Assembly: GCA_021464245.1 (NCBI GenBank)
Contig: JADCRB010000157.1
Location: forward strand, 785,963 to 849,962
DNA: 64,000 nucleotides
Reading direction: 5' to 3'
Source: Carallia brachiata
Lineage: Eukaryota; Streptophyta; Magnoliopsida; Malpighiales; Rhizophoraceae
Position numbers and translations under genes: made by a program
Shown: in pieces, positions 8,725 through 59,045 of the stretch
Numbering within the stretch: the stretch's first letter is position 1
Layout of the letters: the number at the start of each line of letters is the position of its first letter
Notes under the pieces: model-generated
What the model was told of the DNA's origin: nothing
Database searches by the model: none
The model's input: only the letters and a program-made list of their open reading frames with translations

Positions 8725-9829
8725 CCTATACTCCTGATATTACATTTTAATCGGCCCCTATAACAGAAGAGTCGTACATTACGGTTTCATGCTTTTGTAG
8801 TTTATTTTTATGCATACATGATTTGGAATTTGTAATACTACAAAGTTCTTTTTGGGTTAATTGGCTACGGGACTAAAGATCTACAGGAATAAAAGTTTCG
8901 AATTTGAGTTTCTCTTTTTTTCTTTTTAAATTGGTTTTGATTCGGACTCAAACCCAAGAAATTTATTCCTCGATTGTATATTTTGTCTCAGGCAGGGCAA
9001 GACGGTTTTCCAACTATTTAGACCTGCAGACTGTCTTTCTTTTTTTCTTTTTTTTTTTTTTAAATTTCTTTATGAGTTGGAGTTCAGTTGGTAGAAAAAA
9101 GAGAATGAGGGTTAAGAGGTAGGAGATTGAACCTTAGACCTGGCGGTTGGAAACCTGTAGACTAGTGAACTGGCGAAGCCTACATCAAATGGGCTTTAAG
9201 AAAGCGCCTTACCGCCTTACGCGCACTAATAGGCTGTCATGTTCAAAATATTTGGTTGGTCCAGCAAATGGATACCAAGTAACTTACGAGATTGGGGTCT
9301 GGATTTTCGCCCGATGGTCACCCCATAACCAACATCGAGCCGTTTTGCCCGTCCACCTCTCCGTTGCAGGCTTGCAGGCTTCCAGCAGCGAGATGACAAT
9401 GCCAATCGTCAAGCAGTTTCCTAGATCAACACCTGTGACCTGCATCTCTTCTTCTTGTCTGTCTTTTACGTCTGTTCTAGTCCGACAAGCTGTGTAAAGA
9501 TTATTATTATTATTATTAGTGGAGTCGAAGTGTTCTGTAATCAGTAATGGGTAGAAATGAATCAGCGGGTGGAAAACTTGACAACACCGGAATCGTCTTT
9601 TCCCTACAGAAAATCGGCTGAAATTTGCCATCATGTACATCGTTGTTCTTGCAAGTGGTAAAGAAACGATTGATAACCGGGCAAAGCAAAGTTTATATGA
9701 GAGAAATATCTTACAGGCATCCCATCCCACTTCCCCTGTTCACCCAATCCCTTTCACAACCACACTTCCAGACTGCATTTTAATCTTGGGCTGGATTTTT
9801 TTTTGGGGGGGGGGGGACATGCTGCATGT
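8725..9829. other. EF-P 3' flank and repeat-like intergenic DNA
   Basis: The EF-P 3' UTR probably lies in the first 100-200 bases. Around 9070-9150 a box-A-like GTTGGTAG followed by a GAGATTGAACC box-B-like motif suggests a weak tRNA-derived SINE fragment. A (TTA)n tract (about 9500-9520) and a G11-12 homopolymer (about 9805) are present. No convincing exon was found. Confidence 0.4.
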
Positions 9830-10153
9830 TTAGAAAGCACGGACAGGCAGGATGGAATACCTTATCAGGAGCTTGAAGTGGGTTTTGTGCTAGAGTCTGC
9901 TTTGGCAAGTGAACTTGAATCAGCTGCAGGTTGGGATCAAGGGTGGGACGATGACTTGGAAGAGAGAATGCAGTTAAGTCAGCAGGCCACAAGACGTAGG
10001 AAACGTATCAGCGAATGGCCTTACGACTAGGTCTCCAAACCCAGATGGATGGGAAAACGATTGGGATAGATTAGAATTTTGCAAGGACAATGGAATGGCG
10101 TCCTCTACCAGCTGATCCTGAAGGTGGACAATGACCATGAAAAAAAAAAAAAA
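9830..10153 (+). pseudogene. Probable retrocopied 3' fragment of an unidentified gene, ending in an A-tract
   Basis: From about 9832 a protein-like stretch reads ESTDRQDGIPYQELE and then a Trp/Asp-rich segment (GWDQGWDDDLEE). After about 9966 the sensible reading moves to other frames: an in-frame TAG appears and an NPDGWENDWD-like end is recovered by shifting frame. The fragment stops in a 13-base A run at 10140-10152, as expected for reverse-transcribed mRNA. I do not recognise the parent gene with certainty. It could also be a decayed terminal exon rather than a retrocopy. Confidence 0.4.
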
Positions 10154-12412
10154 GAAAAGGGTAAACGAACTAGGAATAGATACAGGAAATGTAAAAGATG
10201 TGAAATGTAGGAGTATAAATCAATCTACCGTTTGTCAATTTTGACATTTGTAGGAGGCCATACAAAAATAACAGTTCAGTGGGTATTTTTATGTCTGAAA
10301 GAACAGATATTTTATGCCTTCCTGCTTTTACCAAAATGTAAAATTTTGCTTGGCCTCGTTTGTTTTTTAGATCTTCAGACTAAATTGTGATATAAATGCA
10401 GTTGTCCTGACTTTGCCCCAGTTTTCAGTAGCAGAAAACCCGTCTTTATTATATAATCCACGTTTAGGTTTAATGTCAGTGCTCATAGACTGCAGCAGAG
10501 TAAGCACTAAAATGGATGCGACTGTAAAGCCGAAACAAGCGTATTGGTGCTCGTCGTGAAAAGTTAGTTGGCATTTCTTTCATCTTTTTCCTTCAGCAGG
10601 TCCCATGAATTGGAGTCACATCATAAGAGATAGAATCACAATTCCTGCTTTCCACTGTAATCTCGGATTTGGTCTCTAGATAGAAAAACGTTTATGACTT
10701 GAGTAAGACCACGTAGATATATACAGGAAACAAACATTTAATCCAACAATAATCAAGAGCTGTTTTTTTCTTTTTCAAATTTAATTTATTTTTATGATTG
10801 AATTGTCAAGATTATTACTTATTCACTGTGTGTTCACGTACTCAAAAAGTATTTCCATTATGGCTTTATGCCATTGGATTTCCACCTCCTTTTACCATAC
10901 CATACTTTCCGCCTTCTCAAATTTTCACCTTCAACAGTCTGAGGCCCAGTGTTTTATTCTTGCTCGTGTCATCAACCCAAAGACTAACTCTCTTTTCCCC
11001 CGTCACTTGAATGAAAAAATGTCCAATTGTCCACACAGAAGACGACCATTGCGTCACTTTTTTGTCAAGCAGGTGCCAATTGAAAATGGTGGTGGGAAGG
11101 GCTTGGAGACCCTATCAAGAGAGTGCTAGAAAGAAAGCATTACTTTGCAAAGAACATGCTCACCTTTTTTTTTTTTTTTCACTTCACACCGCATAAGCAT
11201 TGAAAATCATGTAAAGTTTCCACTTCAAAGCACAACATCATTGCCGTGCACTAATTTTGCCACGCTAAAAGCGCATATAAGGTTTGCTTTTTCAGGACCT
11301 CCATGTGAATTACTTTGATGATGTCCATGTCAGGCGCATTTATTTGGTTCCTCTTTGAGGGTCCAGCACCATTTGATTGAGTTAAAACACTTAAACTTGA
11401 CATCTAAGTTTTAATCATTAACGCTACATGCTGAGACTGATGGCTTGTTAAAGTTTAAAAATGCACTGCCTTGTCTGAACCAACTTTGAAGGAGCACTTT
11501 GCCAGTATATCTATCTTATCCTATGCTCCATAAGATAATAGTGAACTCACTATACATGTAAGCAATTTCTCGTCGTCTCTTCTATAGAAAAAAAAAAAAA
11601 AATAGCTTACTTGAGTGTAGCTTTGGATTATCAAAATACATGTTTCACCCAAGGGTGCCTGGCAATTTCAGTCTTAGCAATTATAAGTAAATGCAAGAAA
11701 CTGCTTTTCTCCAACTGTCACAACATCCAATTCCTTTTGTCCATTCCCTTGTATTTGGTATTGTTGACTTAAAATGTTGTTAGGGGACTTGTATTTTTCA
11801 GTTCTCTGATTCTTCATATTCCTTTTGCTTTTCATTCTACTCCTATCACATCCAAATAATTTCTTTTTATTTATTATTTAACAAATTGTCCATCCAATAC
11901 TTTATTCGATTCTTTGGACCCATTAGTGGGCTCGCGGCTCGTAAAGTAATGATCCTTCTTTATTTGAACAGGACGATAAAGATGCAAAACGCCACCTACA
12001 TGGAATGAATACAAACCATAATAAAACAAAAGTCAGATTTAGTTAAAATATATCCGATCATCAGGAGAATAAAAATATATCATTTATCATGCGATATCCT
12101 GACTGCCTTACCTTGGAATGTACCTAAATAAACACCTGCTCTTATATTGAACCGGTGAAAAGGAATCCGGTATCAGAGATAGTAATGAAATTACAATAAC
12201 GAAAAAAAAGCCAGCATTACACAACTAAAATTTTACTTGAAAGGGGAAAAAAAGAAAAGGAAAAACTACTTTTTTGAGCATTGACCAAAGGAGCCTAAAA
12301 TTACAACAAAATCCATTATATTCTTTTTGTTCTTGTGAGAAAGCAAACCGGATTCTTCTTCGCCGGAGAAAGCAAATTCTGTTGTTTCTTTCTTGAACTA
12401 CACAAGTTCAGT
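10154..12412. other. Intergenic / PXC2 3' flank
   Basis: This contains the 3' UTR side of the minus-strand PXC2-like gene (about 12200-12412) and moderately AT-rich DNA. Short open frames near 10794-11196 have no domain signature and overlap each other. No repeat or RNA gene was recognised. Confidence 0.4.
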
Positions 12413-19310: not shown

Positions 19311-20002
19311 TTTTCAAATACTTTTTTTCTGGTGATACAATTTTTTCCTTTCTAATATTCCTCTCCCATTCTTCTAGACTTTCGGATCCTTGCAATTATT
19401 TATTTGATTTGCATGTGTAAAAAGAACGGGAGATACCTTCTGTCTGTCATTTTTATCATTTTCCACTTTCCACACCCCCACCTCTCTTGTTATAATCAAA
19501 GCGCCTTTTTTAAAAAATATTTTCATTAAATAAAGAAAGAGTTTGACTATAGAGATATGTAAGAAAAAATACATAAAAAATATATAATTTATCAAATAAA
19601 ATTTATTTGTTTTTTTTAATTTAATATATCTTTTATAAACTAACAATTCATATTATTGCTCATGTTGTGTGTACACTACTTGTTTCACTATTCCTTGCTA
19701 TAAATTTTTTTTCTAAAGAAGAAGGAAATGCTAAATCATAAACGTGTTTCTCCAGGTGGGTTGTCATATTTTTAGCTGCAAATGTAAGGCGTGAGTGGCG
19801 GGTCATCTACGTTTGGCAGATTCACATTATTATTTATTGTTATTATTATTACTTTTTTTTTAGGTTTGTAAAGTGTGATTTGATCGCTAGATGTAATAAT
19901 TCTATAACAAAGACCAATTAGCTTGCGGTATTTATACGATAATTTGCGAGCTGTGAATCTACCCTCCCAGTAGGAAGAAAAAAAAGAGGAAAGAACAAAT
20001 GA

Positions 20003-20282
20003 TAGCACAAGGCTCTTTAAGCAACATGCAATACATCATAAATAGCTCCATTGGTTTACCAGGGGCAAGAGAATATCCTTCAACTGCAGCCAAGGATGGT
20101 GGAAATTGGAAAATGTTTCCAGCACCCTTTATATATATATATATATATATATATAGCACAAGGCTCTTTAAGCAACATGCAATACATCATAGATAGCTCC
20201 ATTGGTTTACCAGGAGCAAGAGAATATCCTTCAACTGCAGCCAAGGATGGTGGAAATTGGAAAATGTTCCCAGCACCCTTTT
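20003..20282. repeat. Tandem duplication, two ~129-bp units 151 bp apart separated by (AT)n
   Basis: Units at 20003-20131 and 20154-20282 are nearly identical and are separated by an (AT)n tract. On the minus strand each unit reads without stops as GAGNIFQFPPSLAAVEGYSL and onward to LLKEPCAI, which looks protein-like, but I do not recognise the source. Few differences suggest a recent duplication, possibly promoted by the microsatellite. Confidence 0.8.
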
Positions 20283-20551
20283 TTTTTTTTTTTTTAATAT
20301 AAATATATATATAATTTTGGGCCATTCAGAATGGGCTATGGCAACAAAGTTGAAACTCTGTATAAGATAAAGTAAGATTTTTTTTTTTTTTTTGTTTTGA
20401 AGAAGTGTTCATAGTCACATAAAAAAAAGGTAGGTGAAGAGTGAACAAAAATTAAAATTTTCATTCATTACAATAACACACACATCTCGTTATTTTTTTT
20501 AATTTATTAGAACTAGTAACTCAACAGCAACTACTGTACTTCTGTTTGTTT

Positions 20552-20766
20552 GTTTTTTTTTTTTTTTTTTTAGTCTACAGGGAAGGTGGCTACCGCCTGT
20601 AACTAAGTGTCAACCCTTAGCTAGTTACCAGCCTAGTCACACGAGGCCAGGCAACCCCTCTGATATCAGTCTGGAGCAGAGACTGGACGCCCTCCGGTGG
20701 AGACGCAAACTCATGCAGACCAGGAGACAAATATCGTGCGTAGTTGGCCAACCAATCAGCCACTTC
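20552..20766 (-). mobile_element. 5'-truncated LINE: RNase H C-terminus plus poly(A)
   Basis: On the minus strand this encodes VADWLANYARYLSPGLHEFA, SPPEGVQSLL and GVAWPRV, the usual C-terminal end of the RNase H domain in plant L1-type LINEs, followed by a stop. A 19-base T run (20553-20571, a poly(A) on the minus strand) ends the element. It joins directly to an ALA1-type cDNA fragment at 20767. See the composite insertion finding. Confidence 0.7.
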
Positions 20767-21349
20767 AGGGCATGGAAACTCAAATCTACAATTGCTGTTG
20801 ATTCTGAACTTATGCAATTGTTGCACAAAGACTTAGCTGGAGAGCAGAGGATTGCTGTTCATGAGTTTTTCCTTGCACTGGCTGCATGTAATACTGTGAT
20901 TCCAATTCGTTCCCAAAATAAATCTAGTTCCACAGAGGGTAATTCTTATGAGAATGTAGAAACGATTGATTATCGGGGTGAATCTCCTGATGAGCAAGCA
21001 TTAGTTGCTGCAGCTTCTGCATATGGTTATACTCTCGTTGAACGTAAGTCCCGGGCACATAGTAATGGATGTTGATGGCAAGAAATTAAGGTTCGATGTA
21101 TTGGGCGTGCACGAATTTGATAGTGTGCGGAAAAGAATGCCAGTTGTGATCAGATTTCGTAATAATGCTGTAAGGGTGCTGGTGAGCGGTGACAGGTGCT
21201 GATACATCCGTGTTAAGCATTTTAGCTAAGGATGATAGCGGGGATCATGTGAGGCATGCAACTCAGGATCATTTGACTGAATATTCATTGCAAGGTTTAA
21301 GTAAACTCGTGATTGCTGCAAGAGATCTTACAGAGGAAGAACTTGAGCT
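20767..21349 (+). pseudogene. Intron-less retrofragment of an ALA1-type P4-ATPase mRNA
   Basis: The plus strand matches two consecutive exons of the ALA1-like gene at 56495-56159 and 56055-55302, at roughly 95% identity by eye. It starts at agggcatgg inside the first exon and runs through LAACNTVIPIRSQNKSS, ESPDEQALVAAASAYGY and on to EEELEL. The 103-base intron between those exons is missing, so the copy came from spliced RNA. It carries small indels that break the frame (about 21045 and 21185) and lacks both ends of the coding sequence, so it is non-functional. Confidence 0.85.
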
Positions 21350-21359
21350 CTGTTTGTTT

Positions 21360-22068
21360 ATTTTTACGAGTTCTATGTGGGATACTTGGGTTATAATTTA
21401 AGTGGGGTAAACCGGCCTGGCTTAAGCCTGCGGCCTGTTGGTCCACTGGACAATCCAATGGAGGCATGAAGCACAGTAGGGAAGGTACCAGTCCACTTCT
21501 TCCCCACCTTTTTTTATTGGCCCACGCCTTTCTTCCTTTTGGAACAGAAAACAAAAGAAACCCAATGAAATGTTCATGAAATACATATCAAATGTGAGGC
21601 AAAACTCTTGTATTGATTGAATTCTCTACGTTTTCTAGGAATTTTTCTCTCTTGGCGGCCTTGTCCCGTTCATTTTCGCAGGCAGCATATCCGCCATCAG
21701 GTCAGGACTCGCTCTTGGTGGGTTTCTTTTGGCATTCAGTGCGTGGAGTTTGAGACCACAAAGAAGGTGACAACCATGTGATCTAGCCTTAAAGGGGCAA
21801 AAGCGAATCATAAACAAATCACTAGGATATATCAAACCACAAAAGACCCATTAAACTATTAAAATCCATATAGTATTTCCGCTGCTCTTGGGAAGTAAGT
21901 AACACTTACAGAGTACACTTTTAAATACAAAGCGTGAGACTTCGCAATAAAGAGTTACCAGGGTGCCCAATTAATACATTGCCGCCCACCACCACCCCAA
22001 CACAAGTCAAGATAGAAGCACCTTAGAATTTGGAAATATGTTCCTGTACTCAACAAACTGCTATAATT
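21360..22068. other. VSR 3' flank
   Basis: This lies between the composite insertion and the VSR stop codon. The part nearest 22068 is the likely VSR 3' UTR. No other gene was recognised. Confidence 0.4.
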
Positions 22069-25000
22069 CTAGATATCTCCGCGGGGAGCACGATGAACAG
22101 GGATCTCTCCTTGACTATCCAATGGCATGTACTGTGCCATGATAGCTCGTATCTCTGAATCCATGTATTGCTGCACAGCAGTTCAAAAATAGTTGAAAAC
22201 TCAGTATATTGCTTCTTTTTTCGTTCACTCTCAGCTAATTGTTTATCAGCTACATAAAGTAGGCATTGAATGTGCGGAAGTCCTAGACAACATACCCGGA
22301 TTCTGTATTTGTAAACTGCATATCCAGCAACTCCAGCAGCAGCTAAGCCAAGTATTATAAACCAGACAAAGCTCCAACTAACTGTGGTGGATTCTTTACC
22401 TGAATCATGGCATATAAAGCTTCAGCAAGGTGCAAACAGACGAAAACCACAATACATAGAGAATATTGCCATGTAACATAGAGGGAAAATAAAAACTTCA
22501 AAACCCCAGCCAACAAGATCTTTTGAAAATTGAATTATCGATCAAGTTAACAGAACATATTCATTCAGCCTGTACATCATCCATGAGGCTGGCAGGACAA
22601 AGCAAAGGGAAGCCAAAGAAAAGTCTAAATAGTGAAACCAGAAGCCAAGTCTTGCAGGGATGATAATAATTATGAGACAAAAATAGAGCTAATTTGGTGT
22701 TGTAAGCTATGGAGGGCTAATTTGGCTAAAAGTCAGCACTGTTTTGTTGAAGAACAGAAACAATTGTGCTCTGCAAATACTCACTTATGCACGTGTCATG
22801 TTCACGCATGTATAATAAACCACTACCACAGCTGCACTCATAGCTACCCCAGTTGTTCTTGCATTTGCATTCTGGGCATTGGCATGCCAGCTTCTCTTTG
22901 CACTCATCCACATCTGGACAAAAGGAAAAAGAACATGAAGAGATAATTAGTCTGTCCCCAACGCAAACATTCTAAATCTAGGATATATTTGCCGGCAGGG
23001 TCAGCTACCACAAAAAATGTTCACTCGTAATTCCTTAGAATGGAGATCTTGTGTCAGAGATGATTAAAAAAAAAAAAGGCAAAATTTCTAACATTATAAT
23101 GAACTTCAAGGAAGCAACACAACTTTCCCCAAAACGCAACATATTTTCAACTCAAAACAACATATAAAAAAACCACAAATCTCATCAAGTGACTCACGGA
23201 CTCAATAGACCAACAGCACATTAGCTATGACATCAAAATGTAACAATCAAGGACAGGAAGAAGTACCCTCGCAGGACTTGACTCCATCACCCTTGAATCC
23301 AGAAGGACACTTGCAACCTTGTAAATTATCCTCCTGAAAATCCCAGTGGAATAAGAGTTACATAGAAATCATGAAATAAGCAGAAACAGATAGACGTGAA
23401 GAAGACAACTAAGGTTGGACTTAATACTTACGCTGCAAGCAGAGTAAGTCCTACCATCTTGGCTTTGCTTCCAACATCCTCCATTGTTAATCTCACATCG
23501 TAAAGAACCAGGAGCTGCTGACCAAACAAGTAGAAACATTAATGCCTATGGGAGAAGGAAAAAACAACTGCATAGAATCGTAAGAGTTTTGCATGGCAGT
23601 TTTGGAAAATAACTCTTGCAATATTAGTTAAAATTAGCCAAGTAGTTTGAAATTTGTCTATATGAAAAACTTTATAGGGTCCTATCCAAGGTCCAATGGG
23701 ACACCAACTAATCAAGAAGGGAAAAAAGATTGTCACACCAAAGTTATATATGTGCCAAGCAAAGGAATTAGTTGACAATGTTTCACCATCTCCTTCACAT
23801 GACATAAAGCATGACAAGTTTTGGGACAACATTAGAAAAAGAGAAATGGTGTGATTGTTGAGGCAACAATTTAGGCCCCCAGGGCAGCAATCGTTACTTT
23901 TTACGTAAAGATAATATGCAAATACGCACGTATCTTATAAGCATAACACGTCAACAAATGTATATTCACGATTACCTTTTATTTTTTTCGGTTTAGTTGG
24001 ATTGGGGGAGGGGGCTATTTTCTCTTAGCAAGGTCTGGAACCCCTGATCTCACCCCAAACTTTAAGTTTGGTAGCCACTAGACTATACCTATTGATTTCA
24101 TGATTACTTATATTATGGTAGCCCTGTATGCATTTGTGAAATTGAGGTGTGACAAATATATTGAAATGAAAAAGAATTACCTGCACAATGGGTATATCCG
24201 TCCCCAGTAAACTTCACACCTTGTACCACTGGACATTCACATACTCTACCGCGAAAAGTGTCCTATATGATACAGGTCCAGAGAGAGTAATGATCTTAGA
24301 ATTAATGAATTTCTCATGAATATTGCGACTGGAAATGGTTGAGACAATTACATATACCTTGCAAGCAGTAATGTTAGCAGCCTTATCCTGCCAGCATCCA
24401 CCATTGTTTTCCAAGCATTCATTAGTTTCTATATCTGCAGACCAAGAAGCAACAATGAATACCATAACCCTGAAGCACTACCCAGCAATCAGCTTTATAC
24501 TATGAGGTTACTATGTTAGTCATCTTTCAGAGGTTCCTAATTAATTAATGACAAAACATTACTAACAGCCAAAAGTCGTGGAAGAAAAGAACAAAGAGAC
24601 TGTAAACTCAATTAGAACAACAGAAATCTGCGCTCTGAAAGAAAATAACCTTCAGTCAGGCATATGGCTGGCTCGGTTGTCTCTTGGAAGCCAGAACAAA
24701 CAGCCTTAAGAACTGCTCCTTTCTCCAACTTACCTGTAAACAGCAGAAAATATATATCAGAAATTCCACGTCATGCACATTGGCAGCTAATCAGAGATGC
24801 AGAAATGTCCATTTCAAACCTCTATACTGTCTGTTGTTTACAACAAGAGTTGGCAGTATAGTCACATCGCCTCGAGAGCCTTTTCCAATCTGAAGTAGGA
24901 GTTGCAAATGTAATAATCAACACAGCATTGCAATATATATATATAATAAGAGGGAGAGATGAGGGAAACATTTGACTTTTGAAACAATTAATATTCTATA

Positions 25001-26897
25001 AATCCAACCTGTGCCTCCTGTTCAGCTTTGAGAACTGCATTATCTGCGTCTGCCTCAGGGTCTCCCATGCATTCATCCACTTTCTTGAGATCAACCCCTG
25101 ATATAGATGTACATATAGATTATCAGAGGCATGCTAATATTTACACCCAGCATAGACAAACTAATAACGACACAGCAGGAATTTAAAATATTTGTGCTCT
25201 TCTTCTTAATGGAAAATATGGTAGAGAGCATTTATCCAAGAATCACAGAATAAATCCAAGAAGGATCAGCATAGAAAATTTTCAGCAGATACGAAGGATG
25301 AGCATCAGTATCCACAACACAGAATTAAAAACAACATTGGTAAATTAGCATAGGTGAAATGGCATCCACAAAATTACAGAAAAAAAAAAACCTACCAAGA
25401 GATCGAATAACTTGATCTGCACATTCTTTTGTGTATTTCTTATCTTTCATTGGGCAACGAATTGCAAAGTCGGTGACATAGTCCCACCAAAGCCATGGCT
25501 TCCCACTTTCGTTGGCCACTTTGAAAAAGCAAATTTGGCGCAGATTTTGAACCACAACATCTTTTCCATCATAACCTTTGCTAAAGTCTTGCTCGGGATC
25601 TGGAGCACAGTACCTGCCATGGTTGATGCACTGAGACTTGCACTGCTTGCTCAGAATGAAAGCATCTGGGCAATACCATGTTATATAGTGTGGTGTGAAC
25701 TGGGTATAAGCCTTCCGCTCAAGTATCTGGGCTACACCCTTGAAGTTCTTCACAAAATCAATCTGGCTTTCACATTTTGTCCCACACTCATCGTTACTAT
25801 TTGTCCAGAGCTCATATTCAACCCGCTCATCAGGATGTGGAAGAGCTTCTGTCCAATCAAGACTCAATTTAATCATCTCCCCAGCAGAGAGAGCTTTCTT
25901 AATATCATCCCCCAAAGATTTGCTAATGAGGGCAGACGGGATGGTGATATTTTGGAAATAATCAGCATCTACGTTGCCTTCTTCTGGCGTGTCCATGGTA
26001 ATCAATGGTTCAGTCCTGTCATCTGCAACAAGAACAGCTGCAGCTCCAAGTTTCTCTGCGTTCCATGCCTTCAAAGTGAAGAAACAGTCTGCCATAACAG
26101 AAATCTCGTGAGGAAACAGTCCGTTGAAATCATGTGGCAGCAACAATAACTAAAAGGATGCCCTCGCACACTTGGGGTATCAGTATAAATGCAACATTTT
26201 ATGGTTCAATTCATAATAGGCATGTGGATTAACCCCAAAACCCAGCTTTTTGACAACTTATAAGTCAACCATAACTGCCGAATGCCAAAAGTTGAAAATC
26301 ACAAAACTTTCCAAAAAAAGGTTCTAAAATTATTCCCTGAGCAAGAAATTAAAAAAAAAAAAAAACAAAAAACAAAAAACAAAAAACTGTAACATCTCAT
26401 AAATAGAACAACGACCAATTACACAACTATCATTAATTTCAAATAAACACCCCCCCCAGTTTCTATAATTGATCAGAAATAAATAACCCACCAGCACAAA
26501 CAACAAAATAAGGAAAAGGCATGAAAACTGAAAAGAAAATAAGAAAAATTAAATCGAAGTAAAGAAAAAGTAAAGTAAGCTGAAATTAAGGAACCGAACC
26601 TCCTCGATCGACAAGAAAAAACGAGGGAAGACAGCCGGCATCGGATTTGAAGGAGATATCGGACTCCTCGAAGCTCTTGCATGCCTTGTGATTCGCTTTA
26701 GGATAAACAACGGTCCCGACCAAAGTCCCTCCGTACTGGGGAACCCCAAAATTGCCGATCGCACATTCGTAAACTCCTTTCAATGAATCGGGCGACGTGA
26801 CTTTCAAGCTGTTCTTCTCCACCACGAACCTACCCAAGCAAGACCCACATAGCAAAAAAAGCCATAAACCCACCAAAGTTGCGAACTTTTCCCTCAT
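22069..26897 (-). CDS. VSR1: Vacuolar sorting receptor (VSR1/BP-80 type)
   Basis: A type I receptor that carries NPIR-type cargo from the Golgi/TGN to the vacuole. Twelve exons join with consistent phases: 26897-26600, 26088-25396, 25097-25009, 24889-24820, 24733-24650, 24434-24358, 24262-24181, 23517-23432, 23333-23267, 22913-22785, 22399-22296 and 22170-22069, giving about 626 aa, normal for the family. It has a signal peptide (1-22), a PA domain ([18 protein letters not shown] onward), the VSR central domain ([14 protein letters not shown]), three EGF-like repeats rich in NNGGCW and CKCP motifs including the calcium-binding DVDECKEK, a TM helix (about 565-588) and a cytosolic tail with the AP-binding signal YMPL at about 607-610. 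The acceptor of exon 8 is a NAGNAG (23517 or 23514), which keeps frame either way and adds or removes one Ala. The gene appears intact. Confidence 0.96.
24000..24095 (-). mobile_element. tRNA-derived SINE-like fragment inside a VSR intron
   Basis: On the minus strand tagtctagtggctacc resembles a Pol III box A, and ggggttccagacc some 40 bases later resembles a box B. It lies in the intron between exons 7 and 8. Ends and target duplications were not resolved, and no acceptor-stem pairing supports a real tRNA. Confidence 0.4.
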
Positions 26898-29094
26898 CTT
26901 TCGCTCTGAAGCCTAAACCAATTCTCTGTGTTTCAATCAAAAATCAATCAAAGATCCAAGTCAGTTTCCTCGCTTCTTCTTCGCCTTAAATATTAATAGT
27001 CCCGTACACCACAGTACACTTATATAACTATATATATACATGCCAGAGACAACAGGAACACTTCTTAGATATTAATGAACAGATTAACAAAAAAAAACTA
27101 AAAATTGGATCAAATCAGGCTCAATCAGAGAATTTTGAAAACCCAGATCAGGAAGATGTAAAGAAGAGATCTACCAGGAGGAAAACTAGGTCCTTCGATC
27201 TCAGAGGGATTCTTGAAAAACAATAAATAAAAGTTGAGGCTTGTTGGTCAGTCTTCCTTCAAGCCAAGATTAGAATTTCCACGGCACGGTAGATAGATTT
27301 CAAAAGACGTGTTGTTCTAGAAACGTTAAAATTGATGAACAGATTGGGAAGACTTGGGGAGTTTGCTTGCTGTTAAAACTTTTTTCTTTTCCTGCGTAGA
27401 CCGTGAAAAATTATAAGAAAAAAAAAAAAAAAGGCGGTGGGCCATTTAATAAAAGAATTATTATTCTTTAAAAAAATATTATATAAATCGTCGGATGGAT
27501 TCTTGTGCACATCCCCACATTAGTTCAGCAATTTTTTTATTTGATTTAATTTTTTATTATAAATAATTTATTTATAATTTTACGTTATATAATAATAAAA
27601 TTAATTTAAAATAAAAAATAATATAAATTTATTTAATATAAAATTATATAATAAATTATATTAAAAGATAAATAAAAATAATGTTAGATTATTATATAAT
27701 AAAGCTCAAAATTATATGACATCGATCCGATCCAACCCCACGTGGAGTTGGTTTCTTTAAATTTTTTTTGTGCCACGAGAGTAACATATACATATAATTA
27801 AAAATTTTTTTGCTTTTATAAGATTAGTTCAAAGTAGCAAGCAACAAAATGCTATATGTCGTAATTGAAGTTATAAAAAATGATATAAATCTTGTTGAAA
27901 AAAATTGTGTAGTTATTTATTATTATTTAATTTTAATTATGTAGCCTTATTTTTATATTATATGACGTTCTTTTTCATTATGCAGTAAAAAAAATAAAAA
28001 AAAAATTAAAATTTCCACCAAATCTCATTTCTCCCTCCCTAAATACCTAATAAAATTTTTTATAGACTGAAAAAAAAAAAAAAAAAGTTTAGTGTAGACT
28101 CCATTCGCTCCAGTAAGTAGCGGAAAACATGTAAACAGCCATCAATTAAGGCTTAATTATCGATCTGAAAATGATACATTTTCTTTCCCTCCGAATCCGA
28201 TCGCTCCAAAATTACTGACGAAGCTTCACTCATTCGCAAGGATCCACGTGTTTACATCAACAAACATCATCGGATAATCCATTCCTGATCAATGCCTCTG
28301 ATTGCATTGCATGGCATTTAATAATGGTGGGCCCTTTCTGCCCCCCGCACGTGATCCACCTGTTCACCGCAACTATACGGACGGTTCCTTTCAATCGGGA
28401 TCATTTTAACGGGATTTTGTGAGTTATGCATGAACATGCACTTAATTACGAATTTAATAATTTATATGTCTCAGAATCGACATTCACTTAAGAGAACTGT
28501 TTGGTTTCAAAGGAGATCTCGGAGATTTGAATAAATTTAAAATGATATGATCTTTAAGTTGATCATTATTAGTATTAATTAAAGCTAAGATGATGTCAAA
28601 TTTATCTGGTATTTATTCATGTACGTTTCTACAATTTGGAACCATTTTGCCCGGCGAATGGGACCTTTTTTTTTTTCTCCTAGTCAAAATTATTATATTA
28701 ATATTTGGTGAAAATATACATAAAACTAATGTAAAGTAATCGAAAAAAATTTATTGAAGCACAAGAGAAAATTAACACAATTGACCTACATATCATATGG
28801 TCAGACTGATCATTTACAACTTTTGCAGAAAGCCTGAAATTAACAAAATTTCAATTAAACTTACTTAACATCTAAATGTTAATTAGATATAATATAGTCA
28901 GAAAAGTTATAAACAATAGCAGAAATTACACCTTAACAGACTTATATCAGAAATTGTTGGGGTACTTCCAACAACAATTTCTAAGACAGTAAAATAACGA
29001 ATACTTCCAACAACAATTTCTAAGACAATAAAATAACAGAAAAAAAATAAACATAAACAGTAATCACTCCACACAAAAGTAAATAGTAGCACTT

Positions 29095-53588: not shown

Positions 53589-56500
53589 TCAACTAGCACC
53601 TCCGTTGGGTGTTGACCCCAAATAATCAGGTCCTCTTTTCAGTATCTCGGCTTCTCTGGCTATCTGGATGTCTGAAGGCCGAAAAGTTTGATATACAATT
53701 TTAAAAAGAAAGCGAGGGAGCAATGCAACAACTATTATAAGTACAATGGTGAGCCAATAGGTAGGTGACTTTGCCTGATGGTAGATTGTCCTGCAGAAGG
53801 TACACAACATCTTAGCTTGATTATATAAGGCAACAAAAATCAAAACAGTCCCCCAGGAATTGATAATAACTAACCCGTAATTTGGGAAGACAGGTATAGA
53901 ATCCAACACCACCATACAAGCATAAGTAATGATGACTGATCCCCAAACAGCAACATGAGTGATGTATACCCAGCGCTGGATGTCCATTGCCAAGTGAACA
54001 TTAACGAGGATAACAACTGCAATCGTCCACAAGCTGCCCATGCTCCATATATCAATGGTGCTCTCCCGATAAACTAACACAGGTATCACAAAAAGACCAA
54101 TACTCTGCCATAATGTATCAGTCATTGTGATCCAGAAGAGCTGCATATTGTAAGCCTCCTGTCTATGCCCCGCACCATAAAGTTTGGGGTACTTTAGTAG
54201 TGTACGGTGGCTTAAATCCTTGTCCAGGATGCCAACAACTATGGTGGGAACAGAAGTATAAATGACAGAATAAAAAACACTACTCCAGTCCGTCAATGCA
54301 GAAGTTGTTGAAAAAGCAGTGCACATTATATACCTAAAGATACACAAGAAAAGCACAGGATTAAGCATGAACTTACAGCATTTTACTGCAAATAATTTGA
54401 ATATTACCACCATCTCTCTCTCTCTCTCTCTCTTATTTTTTTAATGAAGGATAGAGGTGTGAAACGAAACAAAAATATAAACAACACCAATCAATTCCAA
54501 TGAAAATCCATGCTTTATCCTACAGAACCCAAAATATTTGCAGGGGTAACAATGTGAAGATTATTTGATGCATCTCACACACTAGCCAAAAAAAAAACAC
54601 TATTGGATATCAAGAATATAAGGGCGAGGGACCTGGACGTACCAGAATAGCATCAATACAAAGACGGCATTCCGGTAGAAGTTGTACAGAACCAAATAGC
54701 CAACACGTTGGTAATTCCAGTGTCCATGGACCAACAACAGTCTTTTCAGAAACCGAAACTGACCCATAGCAAAATCTGATGCCATGACTGCTTGACGTCC
54801 TTCTTGACCACATATTCCAACACCAACATCCGCCATTTGAATCATGGAAACATCATTAGCACCTACACATATGTCAACAGTCGATAAAAAATACCAGCTA
54901 TTTTAGGGACCAAGACAGTACAATTTTAGCAGACCAAATGACAACCCCTTCCCCAACAGGAGGGAAGGGGGAGAGAGAGGATCAACTCACCATCACCTAT
55001 GGCTAGTGTCATATCATCAGTGTTGCTCTTAATTAGATCCACAATTCCTGCCTTCTGCAATGGTGCAACACGACAGCACAGCACAACCCTACATGAAGTT
55101 GCCAGATCAAAAAGCTGCAGAGAGATAAAAAAAAATTACTGAGCGTCCATTCAAGAATGACGAAACATTTTCACAGATTTATAGATAAAATTTTCAATCC
55201 AATAAGTTATGTGCACAGTTGATGATATTCTCAAGTCAATCTCATAAGTCTCCAGCCAAAATAAAATTGCAATACATATCTTGCAGAAAAAAGATTTGCA
55301 CCTGTGACTCCAGTTCTTTCTCCAAAATGTACACCAAACTGTTCCCATCAATTATAAGTGCAAGCGGCACTTTCATTATTGCATCTTTCTTCCCCTCAGA
55401 CATCTCAAAATGATCAATCTCAGTACTCTTACTGTGTTTAACATTGTTGCTTCTTTTGTTAAATGACTGTATACCATATCTAGCCTTAACATCAGCCAAG
55501 AGTTTTCGGCATTCATTCTCTGACGTGCCATTTATAATAATTTGCTCCATATCCGGTGTCAAGAGTTTGCAAGAGAGGCCAATTGAAATTGCTGTCTCTT
55601 GCTTATCTCCAGTCAGAACCCAGACCTTGATCCCTGCCTGCCGGAGGGACTCAATGGCTTCTGGAACACCATCTTGTAGCCTGTCTTCAATTCCAGTTGC
55701 TCCAAGTAAGTTCAAGTCACATTCAATAAGAGCTGCTGTTTGACGCAATTTTGCAGCCCTGTCGGACAAAGAAGTACTTGCATCATCAAACCTGCGTTGC
55801 CACAGCTCAAGTTCTTCCTCTGTAAGATCTCTTGCAGCAATCACGAGTGTACGTAAACCTTGCAATGAATATTCAGTCAAATGATCCTGCGTTGCATGCC
55901 TCACATGATCCCTGCTATCATCCTTCGCTAAAATGCTTAACATGGATGTATCAGCACCTTTCACCAGCACCTTTACAGCATTATTAGGAAATCTGATCAC
56001 AACAGACATTCTTTTCCGCACACTATCAAATTCGTGCATGCCCAATACATCGAACCTAAATTACACCCGGAAGATACTGTTACAATTTGCTTTGTTGCCA
56101 AAAAAAAAAAAATCAAAAGTGCAATCAGCAATTATTAAAGACTTGAGGAAATTTTTACCTTAATTTCTTGCCATCAACATCAATTACTATGTGCCCAGAT
56201 GTACGTTCAAAGAGAGTATAACCATATGCAGAAGCTGCAGCAACTAATGCTTGCTCATCAGGAGATTCACCCTGATAATCAATGGTTTCTACATTCTCAT
56301 AAGAATTACCCTCTGTGGAACTAGATTTATTTTGGGAACGAATTGGAATCACAGTATTACATGCAGCCAGTGCAAGGAAAAACTCATGAGCAGCAATCCG
56401 CTGTTCTCCAGCTAAGTCTTTGTGCAACAATTGCAAAAGTTCAGAATCAACAGCAATCGTAGATTTGAGTATCCATGCCCTACGTGCAGCTCCAGCTGTA

Positions 56501-59045
56501 CACAAACAAGTAAAATAAAAAAATAAACATGATGAAGGCATAAATGCCTTACAAAGCAGGAATCTACTAGGCTCACTCAGCAACCATATATAGCAGAATT
56601 TTTTTAAAAGAAATCCTCAATAAAAAAGATAAGTGCCAAATAGAAAACAGATAGATTTGGATGGAGTAACAGTCCAAATGGTAATCAAGATAACCAAAAC
56701 AAAAAAGAAAAAAGAAAAAGAATTCCAAAGAATTCACTTCAATATTAATTACAAAAATTACTGGCATAAACAATGATGGTAGCTTCTGTTATTGACAATA
56801 AACGTACAAATGCAAATATTGCTTAGTTTTATAGAAGAAATTCATGAAAAAGATCAAATGCACATGCAAGACATAAAAGAAATTCAACATCACATATGAC
56901 CACAGTAGCATTAGACCCATTTGATAAGGTAAAGCAGAAGCTCCATTGTTTGCTACAACATGGAATACCAGTTGAAAGCCCGGTGACAAACAAGGAGTGG
57001 CACAGCGCTTAACAACAACCTAATCCAGCGAATTCATTGCCCACTTGCCACAAGATCAAAATTTAGGTTGGTAAGAGTTTCAACTCAATGAACAATTGCA
57101 TTTGCTTAAATAGGCAAGAGCACAACAAAAGTATTCCATGGCTATATAGAATAGGAATAAGTCTCACCATGAAGTGAAGATGATAAAGAAAGGATCAAAA
57201 TCAACTATTTGTTTAGTACCTGAAACATTATCTTCCTGCAATTGATCAACTTTAAGCAAGGATCCTCCATAATTCTTCCCATAAACACTTGCTTTCCGGA
57301 ATTCCATTTTGTTCTCTGTCAGTGTCCCCGTTTTATCAGAGAAAACATAGCGTATCTGACCCAAGTCCTCATTTATATTCAGAGATCTGCACTGAAATCT
57401 GGAACCAGAGCTACTGTCAAACATATGCCTGTCTCCAATCATGAAGTAAGACTGTCCCAAACGTACGAGTTCCATCGAAATATAAAGCGATATGGGGATC
57501 ATTATCTGGAAGACTATAATAGAACTTAAAAAGGAGAAAAAGATCTCCATGGGGATCCCATAAAACTTGTATCTTTTCCCATTATCCTTTCCTTTATTGA
57601 AGTATCTCTTCCTATAATAAGGTAAGGTATCAAGCTGATTCTCATAATGTACTAGCCATAGGCCTGTCCCAAGCGCCACAACCAGACACAAGATGAAAAG
57701 AAAGATGGATAACCAGAGTGTCTCTCGGTTCATGTAATTTTCTAGTTTGCTTCTCTTGGAAGGTGATGCTGCACTATTCAGCATTGCCTTTGTTTCCTGT
57801 CCAGCATACACAACAACACCAATTATCCAATCTGTGTTCTTCAGCTGGCAACCACGCAAAACAATATTTGATTGGCTGAGGGAAAACCTATATCCATTGA
57901 ACTCCATATTGGCGTGAACTCATAGATATTTCTATTGGGTTGTTCACATCTGATAAGCCCTGATATTGCGCAACCTTCAGACACTGCTAAAGATGTTTCC
58001 TGTCTAGCATACCTTGTCTTCAAGTTAGACTCACCATCCAAATTCATTGTCTGAATGTAAGCCACCCCACTAGGATCACTGGTCCCTAATAAGACCATGT
58101 CACAAGGAATCGTTTCATCAGCATGAATCTTCACAACTTCACCAGCTTGTATCTTTTTGCATTTTTTGAAATGGAATTCACCTGATTGCAGAACTAGAGC
58201 CTCTCTGTTGTTCTCATTGCGGTCAGATCTGTGCCTTCGCCAATCCTCATAGCCATCTTTGATGGCTGTGACACAAAGCACAAACAGGAGAGGAAAAAGA
58301 GAAACAGTTCTACCAAACACTGCCAGAGGAGGAAGCTGATTGAGTGCAGCAATAGCCAAGAAATACAAGTAAGCAACCCGATGGAACTGAATAAAAAGAT
58401 TCTTAGGCAAGAAGGTAATCAAGGTATACTTGCTGGTTCGGATCTCATTCCCTGTGAACTCGTACTTCTCATTGGTTCTCCTCGGATCATTTATATAGAT
58501 GAACCTGGCATCCTCTTCACACAATGCATTATCATCAAACTGCAACTTTTGTGGCGGCTCCTCCTCTGAGACTTGCTCAACTTATCACGAACAGAAGCAG
58601 CCCTAGACCCCAACTTCGTCTGAAGCGAAGATGAGTCTCCAGAAATTTCAAAGGTAGAGGAAGTCATGTTATTATTGCTGCTATGCGGCAGTTCCATTGT
58701 ACCCCACGATACCAGGCGTGTGCTCTCCCGCGTGGGGCATTCCAATGAAACCTGCTTGAGGAAGCAAGAGTCAACAGAATGGAATTTCCTTGTTGTTGCA
58801 ACAGAACTAAAACTTTCTCCGAGCGGATTCTGACTACGAAAGCTGTTGCATCCGACAGATAGAGCTTCGTCCGACTTCTCCAACTAATCTACGCTGAATG
58901 TTTTACTTTGGATGTCGCTGAAAGTAGAAGAGTTGAATGAATCATTGAGGCACAGACAGCTCAAGGAGCCAAATCTGCGAGAGTGATGAGGGGGAGATGA
59001 CACAGAAGGATCTGACGAGGACAGCAACGGCTGCCCAGAAATCAT
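53589..59045 (-). pseudogene. ALA1: ALA1-like P4-ATPase (phospholipid flippase) gene with a stop codon and frame breaks
   Basis: P4-ATPases flip phospholipids to the cytosolic leaflet at the plasma membrane or endomembranes, usually with an ALIS partner. Exons are 59045-57220, 56495-56159, 56055-55302, 55114-54991, 54862 to about 54639, 54333-53875 and 53790-53589. The N-terminus starts MISGQPLLSSSDPS. Visible motifs are TMNLDGESNLKTRYARQET, DKTGTLTEN (57311-57341, phosphorylation site), VKGADTS, GDGANDVSM across exons 4/5, and ten-helix hydrophobic segments. Breaks are an in-frame TAG at 58884-58886, one base apparently missing at 58543-58547, one at 57911-57914, and a phase mismatch across the 54639/54333 intron. 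Exon 1 fits its next phase only after two bases are added. Everything between the breaks is highly conserved, so this is either a young pseudogene or a functional gene with sequence errors plus a stop allele. Confidence 0.85.
54411..54433. repeat. (CT)n microsatellite in an ALA1 intron
   Basis: About 23 bases of ctctct repeats lie in the intron before exon 54333-53875. Confidence 0.9.

What the first reader, a model, noticed from the sequence alone, without database searches (positions are those of the whole stretch)
20541..21359. One-step chimeric retroinsertion: LINE 3' end fused head-to-head to a cellular P4-ATPase cDNA
Seen in sequence: an 11-bp direct repeat (tctgtttgttt) brackets poly(T), a minus-strand LINE RNase H end and a plus-strand, intron-less internal piece of ALA1-type mRNA. 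The right copy starts exactly where ATPase similarity stops, and the LINE/ATPase junction is at 20766/20767. Known: LINE reverse transcriptases can twin-prime and switch templates. Inference: the second-primed strand copied a cellular mRNA instead of LINE RNA, which explains why the ATPase piece is inverted, has no poly(A) and lacks both ends. Clean plant examples of inverted LINE-mRNA chimeras with a shared target duplication seem uncommon.
Basis: partly seen in the sequence, partly recalled or inferred. Interest (0 to 1): 0.75.

Follow-up and report, generated by a model that had tools for sequence, protein, structure and literature searches.

The report
Inverted LINE–mRNA chimera in a plant
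A piece of a plant jumping gene and a reversed, intron-less copy of a neighbouring gene's messenger RNA sit together between one pair of short repeats, which suggests that both were written into the chromosome in a single event.

Summary
TCTGTTTGTTT occurs twice in the 64 kb, exactly at both ends of poly(T) + minus-strand LINE 3' end (195 bp) + plus-strand P4-ATPase cDNA (582 bp); none of 62,751 other right-boundary placements on the same strand gives an equal match. A 103-bp GT-AG intron of the source gene is precisely missing. The LINE family has RT and RNase H domains. None of the other 19 genome matches holds the fusion, and the collinear paralogous region lacks both halves. Opposite orientation plus intron loss argues strongly against a fused transcript or simple template switch; twin priming with the ATPase mRNA as second template fits best (0.72). 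Microhomology at the second priming site is weak (1 nt), so end-joining of a stray cDNA stays open, and no empty site could be shown. The architecture is published in mammals (snRNA/L1; 2 of 17 human mRNA-or-lncRNA/L1 chimeras by the paper's counts); the listings of nine library searches showed me no plant case. The nearness of the source gene (chance about 2 in 10,000, post hoc) is the most intriguing part.

The parts
20541..20551 (+). left copy of target-site duplication TCTGTTTGTTT
20552..20571 (-). poly(A) tail of the LINE, seen as G + 19 T on the + strand
   Evidence: sequence
20572..20766 (-). 3' end of an L1-type LINE (end of the RNase H reading frame plus 3' tail), 5'-truncated; 93% to the closest genomic copy
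   Evidence: relatives carry RVT_1 (L024) and RVT_3 (L018)
20767..21348 (+). processed, internally truncated cDNA piece of the P4-ATPase gene of this window; a 1-bp and a 7-bp insertion break the frame, no function expected
21349..21359 (+). right copy of target-site duplication; base 21349 is shared with the ATPase source
53592..58581 (-). source gene, P4-type phospholipid-translocating ATPase (approximate span between the reading-frame fragments that match PhoLip_ATPase_C and PhoLip_ATPase_N; true ends not determined)
   Evidence: (L027 fragments converted to window coordinates)
55801..56481 (-). source exon parts copied into the insertion, interrupted by the 103-bp intron 56056-56158 that the copy lacks

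Best explanation
A single target-primed reverse transcription event. The LINE endonuclease nicked the + strand at TCTGTTTGTTT/ATTTTT; the T-rich end primed on the poly(A) tail of a LINE RNA and about 195 nt of the LINE 3' end were copied. After the second strand was cut 11 bp away, its 3' end primed inside a spliced P4-ATPase mRNA instead of inside the LINE RNA (twin priming on a second RNA; compare 'dual priming'), and 582 nt were copied towards the mRNA 5' end. The two cDNAs were joined head to head at 20766/20767 and the gaps filled, giving one 11-bp duplication around both. Shown: duplication, orientation, intron loss, poly(T), identity of both halves, no second copy of the fusion found. 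Inferred: the order of steps, the enzyme, and that the second template was primed at the break rather than captured as finished cDNA.
For: Unique 11-bp repeat exactly at both outer ends. Precise loss of a GT-AG intron, so the template was spliced sense mRNA. ATPase inverted relative to the LINE, without poly(A), truncated at both ends: opposite orientation and 3' truncation are what is reported for twin-primed snRNA/L1 chimeras, and twin priming is suggested for antisense mRNA/L1 chimeras. The nick TTTGTTT/A is T-rich/purine in LINE orientation, whereas the site read in ATPase orientation (ACAGA/AG) is not (sequence), the same test as used in PMC4476161. The 11-bp duplication falls in the 10-17 bp range quoted for 17 human 5'-inverted L1 insertions. 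Halves of compatible age. Relatives L010/L011 show an ordinary 15-16 bp duplication. The 2 kb on either side share no repeat of the LTR or terminal-inverted kind.
Against: Perfect microhomology at the putative second priming site is 1 nt (3 of 4 with one mismatch), less than the 2-5 bp of about 70% of human 5'-inverted L1. No empty site could be shown. Only one locus. The LINE half is too short for a tight age comparison, and it does not show the AT-to-GC excess of the ATPase half. The nick is not the exact TTTT/AA consensus, and a T-rich site fits many sequences in this AT-rich region.
Confidence: 0.72

Rival explanations
1. LINE insertion whose 5' end was closed by end joining that captured a ready-made ATPase cDNA fragment (filler DNA). 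Still one event with one duplication, but the second template was not primed at the break.
For: Weak microhomology at the outer ATPase junction and 0-1 nt at the inner one; both ends of the ATPase piece lie inside exons, at no evident landmark of the mRNA.
Against: Needs a free spliced cDNA made elsewhere, and predicts no preferred orientation; the orientation found is the one that twin priming demands (one case, so a one-in-two coincidence).
Confidence: 0.16
2. Two separate events: a LINE end and an ATPase retrocopy arrived independently and happen to abut.
For: Other repeats lie close by; the empty site was not seen.
Against: The shared unique duplication lies at the outer ends only; the ATPase piece has no poly(A) or duplication of its own; the halves decayed by a compatible amount.
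Confidence: 0.06
3. One chimeric RNA (trans-splicing, RNA ligation, read-through) or an RT template switch on the first strand was inserted.
For: 15 of 17 human mRNA-or-lncRNA/L1 chimeras are in sense orientation, which such routes explain.
Against: These routes give both parts in the same orientation; here they are opposite, and an antisense ATPase transcript would keep the sense-strand intron that is missing.
Confidence: 0.03
4. LTR-retrotransposon or DNA-transposon capture of an ATPase fragment, or an assembly artefact.
For: LTR elements appear to be the major route of retroposition in plants (PMC4838847).
Against: No similarity between the 2 kb on either side; a LINE poly(T) end and duplication; gene and copy lie on one contig without a gap in the window. 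Reads were not available, so an artefact was not tested directly.
Confidence: 0.03

Closest known systems
Twin-primed snRNA/L1 chimeras in mammals (U5, U1, U2 and one U6; PMC4476161)
   Same: 3'-truncated foreign RNA piece in opposite orientation to a 5'-truncated LINE 3' end, one duplication around both; for the U5 cases the nick fits the L1 consensus only in LINE orientation.
   Different: snRNA and mammalian L1 there; here an internal 582-nt piece of a spliced protein-coding mRNA and a plant L1-type LINE; microhomology here is 1 nt.
Antisense mRNA/LINE-1 chimeras in the human genome (PMC13174262; 2 of 17 by its counts)
   Same: mRNA without a first exon, antisense to the LINE, for which the authors suggest twin priming.
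   Different: Human; here plant, with the source gene 34.5 kb from the insertion.
5'-inverted L1 (twin priming; Ostertag and Kazazian 2001, known to me through the papers read) and the dual-priming proposal (PMC2837659)
   Same: Two reverse transcriptions from the two sides of one break; dual priming names two different mRNAs.
   Different: The loci there are L1 sequence, and in dual priming the second mRNA anneals by its poly(A) tail; here the second RNA is a cellular mRNA primed internally.
L1-like processed retrocopies in dicots (PMC4838847)
   Same: Intron-less mRNA copy with hallmarks of LINE machinery in a plant.
   Different: In the text read those copies are recognised by their own A tail and duplication, not by attached LINE sequence; here a LINE piece is physically attached.
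Same-orientation chimeric retrogenes (Magnaporthe, PMC2104539)
   Same: LINE 3' part fused to another RNA between short direct repeats.
   Different: Same orientation, ascribed to template switching; here opposite orientation.

Membership tests
L1-type LINE insertion by target-primed reverse transcription | target-site duplication of roughly 10-20 bp around the whole insert | tested here: met
   11 bp, only these two copies in the window
L1-type LINE insertion by target-primed reverse transcription | 3' poly(A) next to the duplication and T-rich nick site | tested here: met
   poly(T) 20553-20571; TTTGTTT/A; not the exact TTTT/AA consensus
L1-type LINE insertion by target-primed reverse transcription | LINE family encodes RT and RNase H | tested here: met
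   RVT_1 E 4.7e-17 (L024) and RVT_3 E 1.9e-24 (L018) in relatives; a 48-residue frame of the window piece gave no Pfam match; endonuclease domain not tested
processed retrocopy | introns of the parent precisely absent | tested here: met
   one 103-bp intron removed; only one intron lies inside the copied stretch
processed retrocopy | own poly(A) at the mRNA 3' end | tested here: not met
   ends inside an exon directly at the duplication
twin-primed RNA/LINE chimera | second RNA in opposite orientation to the LINE, 3'-truncated, inside the same duplication | tested here: met
twin-primed RNA/LINE chimera | microhomology between target end and second RNA | tested here: inconclusive
   1 nt perfect, 3 of 4 with a mismatch
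twin-primed RNA/LINE chimera | empty orthologous site lacks both parts and has one copy of the duplication | tested here: inconclusive
   collinear paralogous block lacks both parts but is not alignable at the site; no plant relatives held

The most novel reading that the evidence does not exclude
The second template was a transcript present at the insertion site because its gene is next door: a LINE break captured the spliced RNA of a gene 34.5 kb away, so twin-primed chimeras record RNAs that were physically near the break. In a 337.5-Mb genome a random insertion lies within 35 kb of a given gene about 2 times in 10,000 (70 kb/337.5 Mb, post hoc, one case). If so, inverted LINE-mRNA chimeras would be a fossil record of local nuclear RNA at break sites, unlike ordinary retrocopies, for which a between-chromosome preference is reported (PMC4838847).
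Probability: 0.3. Interest if true: 0.65.

Novelty: new member of a known kind. Interest (0 to 1): 0.42.

Why it matters
In the dicot survey that I read (PMC4838847) the case for LINE-made copies of cellular mRNAs rests on hallmarks, and its authors call for experimental work to test the link between LINEs and retroposition in plants. Here a LINE end and an intron-less mRNA copy share one duplication, which ties a plant LINE insertion to the reverse transcription of a cellular mRNA. The mechanism is known from mammals, so the step forward is the kingdom, and the chance to test whether such chimeras draw on nearby transcripts.

Tried and rejected
A same-strand template switch or fused RNA was rejected on orientation plus intron loss. 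LTR or DNA-transposon capture was set aside because the two flanks of 2 kb share no repeat. The paralogue on contig C98 as source was rejected: at 46 sites C98 differs from both others, against 4 sites where the copy agrees with C98 and not with the window gene. RNA editing or general RT error as the cause of the AT-to-GC bias in the copy was considered; the LINE half does not show the bias, n is small, and it is left unexplained. An empty site in the paralogous block was attempted: the right flank aligns only from about window 21574 outwards, and the left flank gives low-complexity matches only. A survey of four other 5'-truncated LINE copies for further chimeras could not be done.

Full report
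What is there. The window lies on contig C66 (785963-849962) of a 337.5-Mb genome in 164 contigs; I take it for a plant from its genes (for example a vacuolar-sorting receptor next door). From left to right the locus reads: TCTGTTTGTTT (20541-20551), G and 19 T, a minus-strand LINE 3' end (20572-20766), a plus-strand ATPase cDNA (20767-21348), TCTGTTTGTTT (21349-21359).

Is it chance? The 11-mer is found exactly twice in 64 kb on both strands; shuffles give 0.11 on average, and 1 of 100 shuffles reached two. With the right-hand boundary slid over 62,751 positions on each strand, no position shares 11 or more bases with the left junction; the best is 9 on the same strand and 10 on the other. 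So a T-rich coincidence at exactly these two boundaries is unlikely.

The LINE half. The 195 bases match 14 places in the genome including themselves, at 74-93% for the other 13, several of them partial (the tool scores only its best candidates, so this is a lower bound). Relatives carry a reverse transcriptase domain (RVT_1, E 4.7e-17, in L024, upstream of the LINE 3' end on the same strand) and an RNase H-type domain just before the 3' end (RVT_3, E 1.9e-24, L018). Two relatives, L010 and L011, which share flanks (96% over 2.7 kb) and so probably descend from one insertion, show an ordinary 5'-truncated insertion with a 15-16 bp duplication. Of the 14 copies, 7 showed no exact non-homopolymer repeat of 11 or more in the searched span and 7 did (the window copy, L010, L011, L015, L017, L021, L022); in the last four the second copy was not shown to sit at the LINE's 5' end.

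The ATPase half. It matches two exon parts of a gene on the minus strand of the same window (56481-56157 at 96%, 56062-55801 at 92%). The intron between them, 103 bp with GT and AG ends at 56158-56056, is absent at base precision. The gene is a P4-type lipid flippase: PhoLip_ATPase_N (E 8.9e-25) and PhoLip_ATPase_C (E 1.8e-48) lie in fragments of the same strand on either side. The first copied exon part itself has no Pfam family at the cut-off but matches a solved phospholipid-transporting ATPase (E 0.00036), and the second matches Cation_ATPase. A paralogue on contig C98 served as outgroup. One search counted 19 changes private to the copy in 578 sites, but one of them (21350) lies in the right repeat; recounted to 21348, 18 of 574 sites are private to the copy (codon positions 5, 7 and 6), 4 to the source gene, 3 are ambiguous, and at 46 C98 differs from both. 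The copy therefore came from the window gene's lineage after the split from C98 and shows no sign of codon constraint; a 1-bp and a 7-bp insertion break the frame. Ks between the two genes over this stretch is 0.17-0.18, so at 0.031 private changes per site the insertion is roughly a third as old as the paralogue split (a rough figure that assumes equal neutral rates).

One event or two? The duplication embraces both halves, and neither half has one of its own. The LINE half has 16 sites that differ from the commonest base of 12 relatives, 3 of them private, and 5 of 195 sites that differ from all of its five nearest relatives. Neither 3 nor 5 of 195 differs from 18 of 574 (Fisher p 0.31 and 0.81), a weak test because the LINE half is short. 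None of the other 19 matches of the whole insertion in the genome holds the fusion. The block C98:1262-1304 kb is collinear with the window in reverse. Between the matches to window 9802-10441 and 21791-26900 it holds neither half; the right flank aligns down to about window 21574, but the site itself does not align. That supports insertion after the duplication without showing an empty site. For the left flank, the 39 other matches all fall on a dispersed repeat in its outer part (40 of 262 candidates were scored); for the right flank, the only other matches are this paralogue. So no empty allele was seen in the assembly, within those limits.

Mechanism. Fused RNAs and first-strand template switches give both parts in one orientation (PMC13174262, passages). 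Here they face opposite ways, and a transcript antisense to the ATPase would have kept the intron. Two reverse transcriptions from the two sides of one break explain it: the LINE tail primed at the T-rich nick, the ATPase mRNA at the other end. PMC4476161 (section on snRNA chimeras read in full; passages) describes this architecture for U5, U1, U2 and one U6 with mammalian retrotransposons, 7 of 30 associated copies, and for the U5 cases uses the test that the nick fits the L1 consensus only in LINE orientation. The like holds here: TTTGTTT/A in LINE orientation, ACAGA/AG in ATPase orientation. PMC2837659 (passages) proposes 'dual priming' by two mRNAs. PMC2912911 (passages) gives yardsticks for human 5'-inverted L1: duplications of 10-17 bp in 17 assay insertions, quoted there from Gilbert and colleagues (met), and 2-5 bp microhomology in about 70% (not met: 1 nt perfect here, 3 of 4 with a mismatch). 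The weak microhomology keeps end-joining of a ready cDNA alive as the main rival.

Novelty. In the human reference, 17 mRNA-or-lncRNA/LINE-1 chimeras are listed, 15 in sense orientation (PMC13174262, section read); for the antisense ones the authors suggest twin priming (section read). The architecture is therefore known. For plants, PMC4838847 (first two of three parts read) reports L1-like retrocopies but no LINE-attached piece in the text read; PMC2848041 (passages) mentions chimeric Sadhu retroposons and template switching, not this form in the passages shown. I saw no plant case in the listings (titles and beginnings of abstracts) of nine searches of the open-licence library (six of the nine, 12, 35, 36, 48, 63 and 73, carried a plant term); subscription papers are mostly not held.

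The source gene is 34.5 kb from the insertion and is transcribed towards it. A random insertion would fall within 35 kb of a given gene about 2 times in 10,000 in this genome (70 kb/337.5 Mb). The figure is post hoc and rests on one case, but PMC4838847 reports that its 4 polymorphic retrocopies lie on other chromosomes than their parents and cites a between-chromosome preference. A break that primes on whatever spliced RNA is near would explain it; this is the boldest reading and is testable by a survey that I could not run.

Noticed in passing
window 20767-21348: The 18 substitutions private to the ATPase copy run 11 AT-to-GC against 4 GC-to-AT (7 are A>G in mRNA sense), the reverse of the AT-ward decay that I would expect in a plant; binomial p 0.003 if 0.35 is expected (assumed), 0.06 at 0.5. 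A 7-bp insertion that looks like a tandem duplication with further changes lies near 21186-21200.
   Followed up: partly
window 20002-20145 and 20153-20296: 144-nt direct duplicate, 93% alike; its minus strand reads as a coding-like piece (GAGNIFQFPPSLAAVEGYSLAPGKPMELFMMYCMLLKEPCAI), and the copies are followed by AT or T runs; origin unknown.
   Followed up: no
window 19541-19666: Short AT-rich dispersed repeat; 39 other copies among the 40 scored of 262 candidates in the genome.
   Followed up: no
C98:1262379-1303993 (L034-L038) against window 6646-59994: Collinear, inverted paralogous block with the ATPase and vacuolar-sorting-receptor genes; ATPase-segment Ks 0.17-0.18, consistent with a whole-genome or large segmental duplication.
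   Followed up: partly
L009, L012, L013, L014: Four of the short LINE copies are truncated, by eye, within a few tens of bases of one another near the same LINE position, which may hint at a preferred stop for the reverse transcriptase.
   Followed up: no
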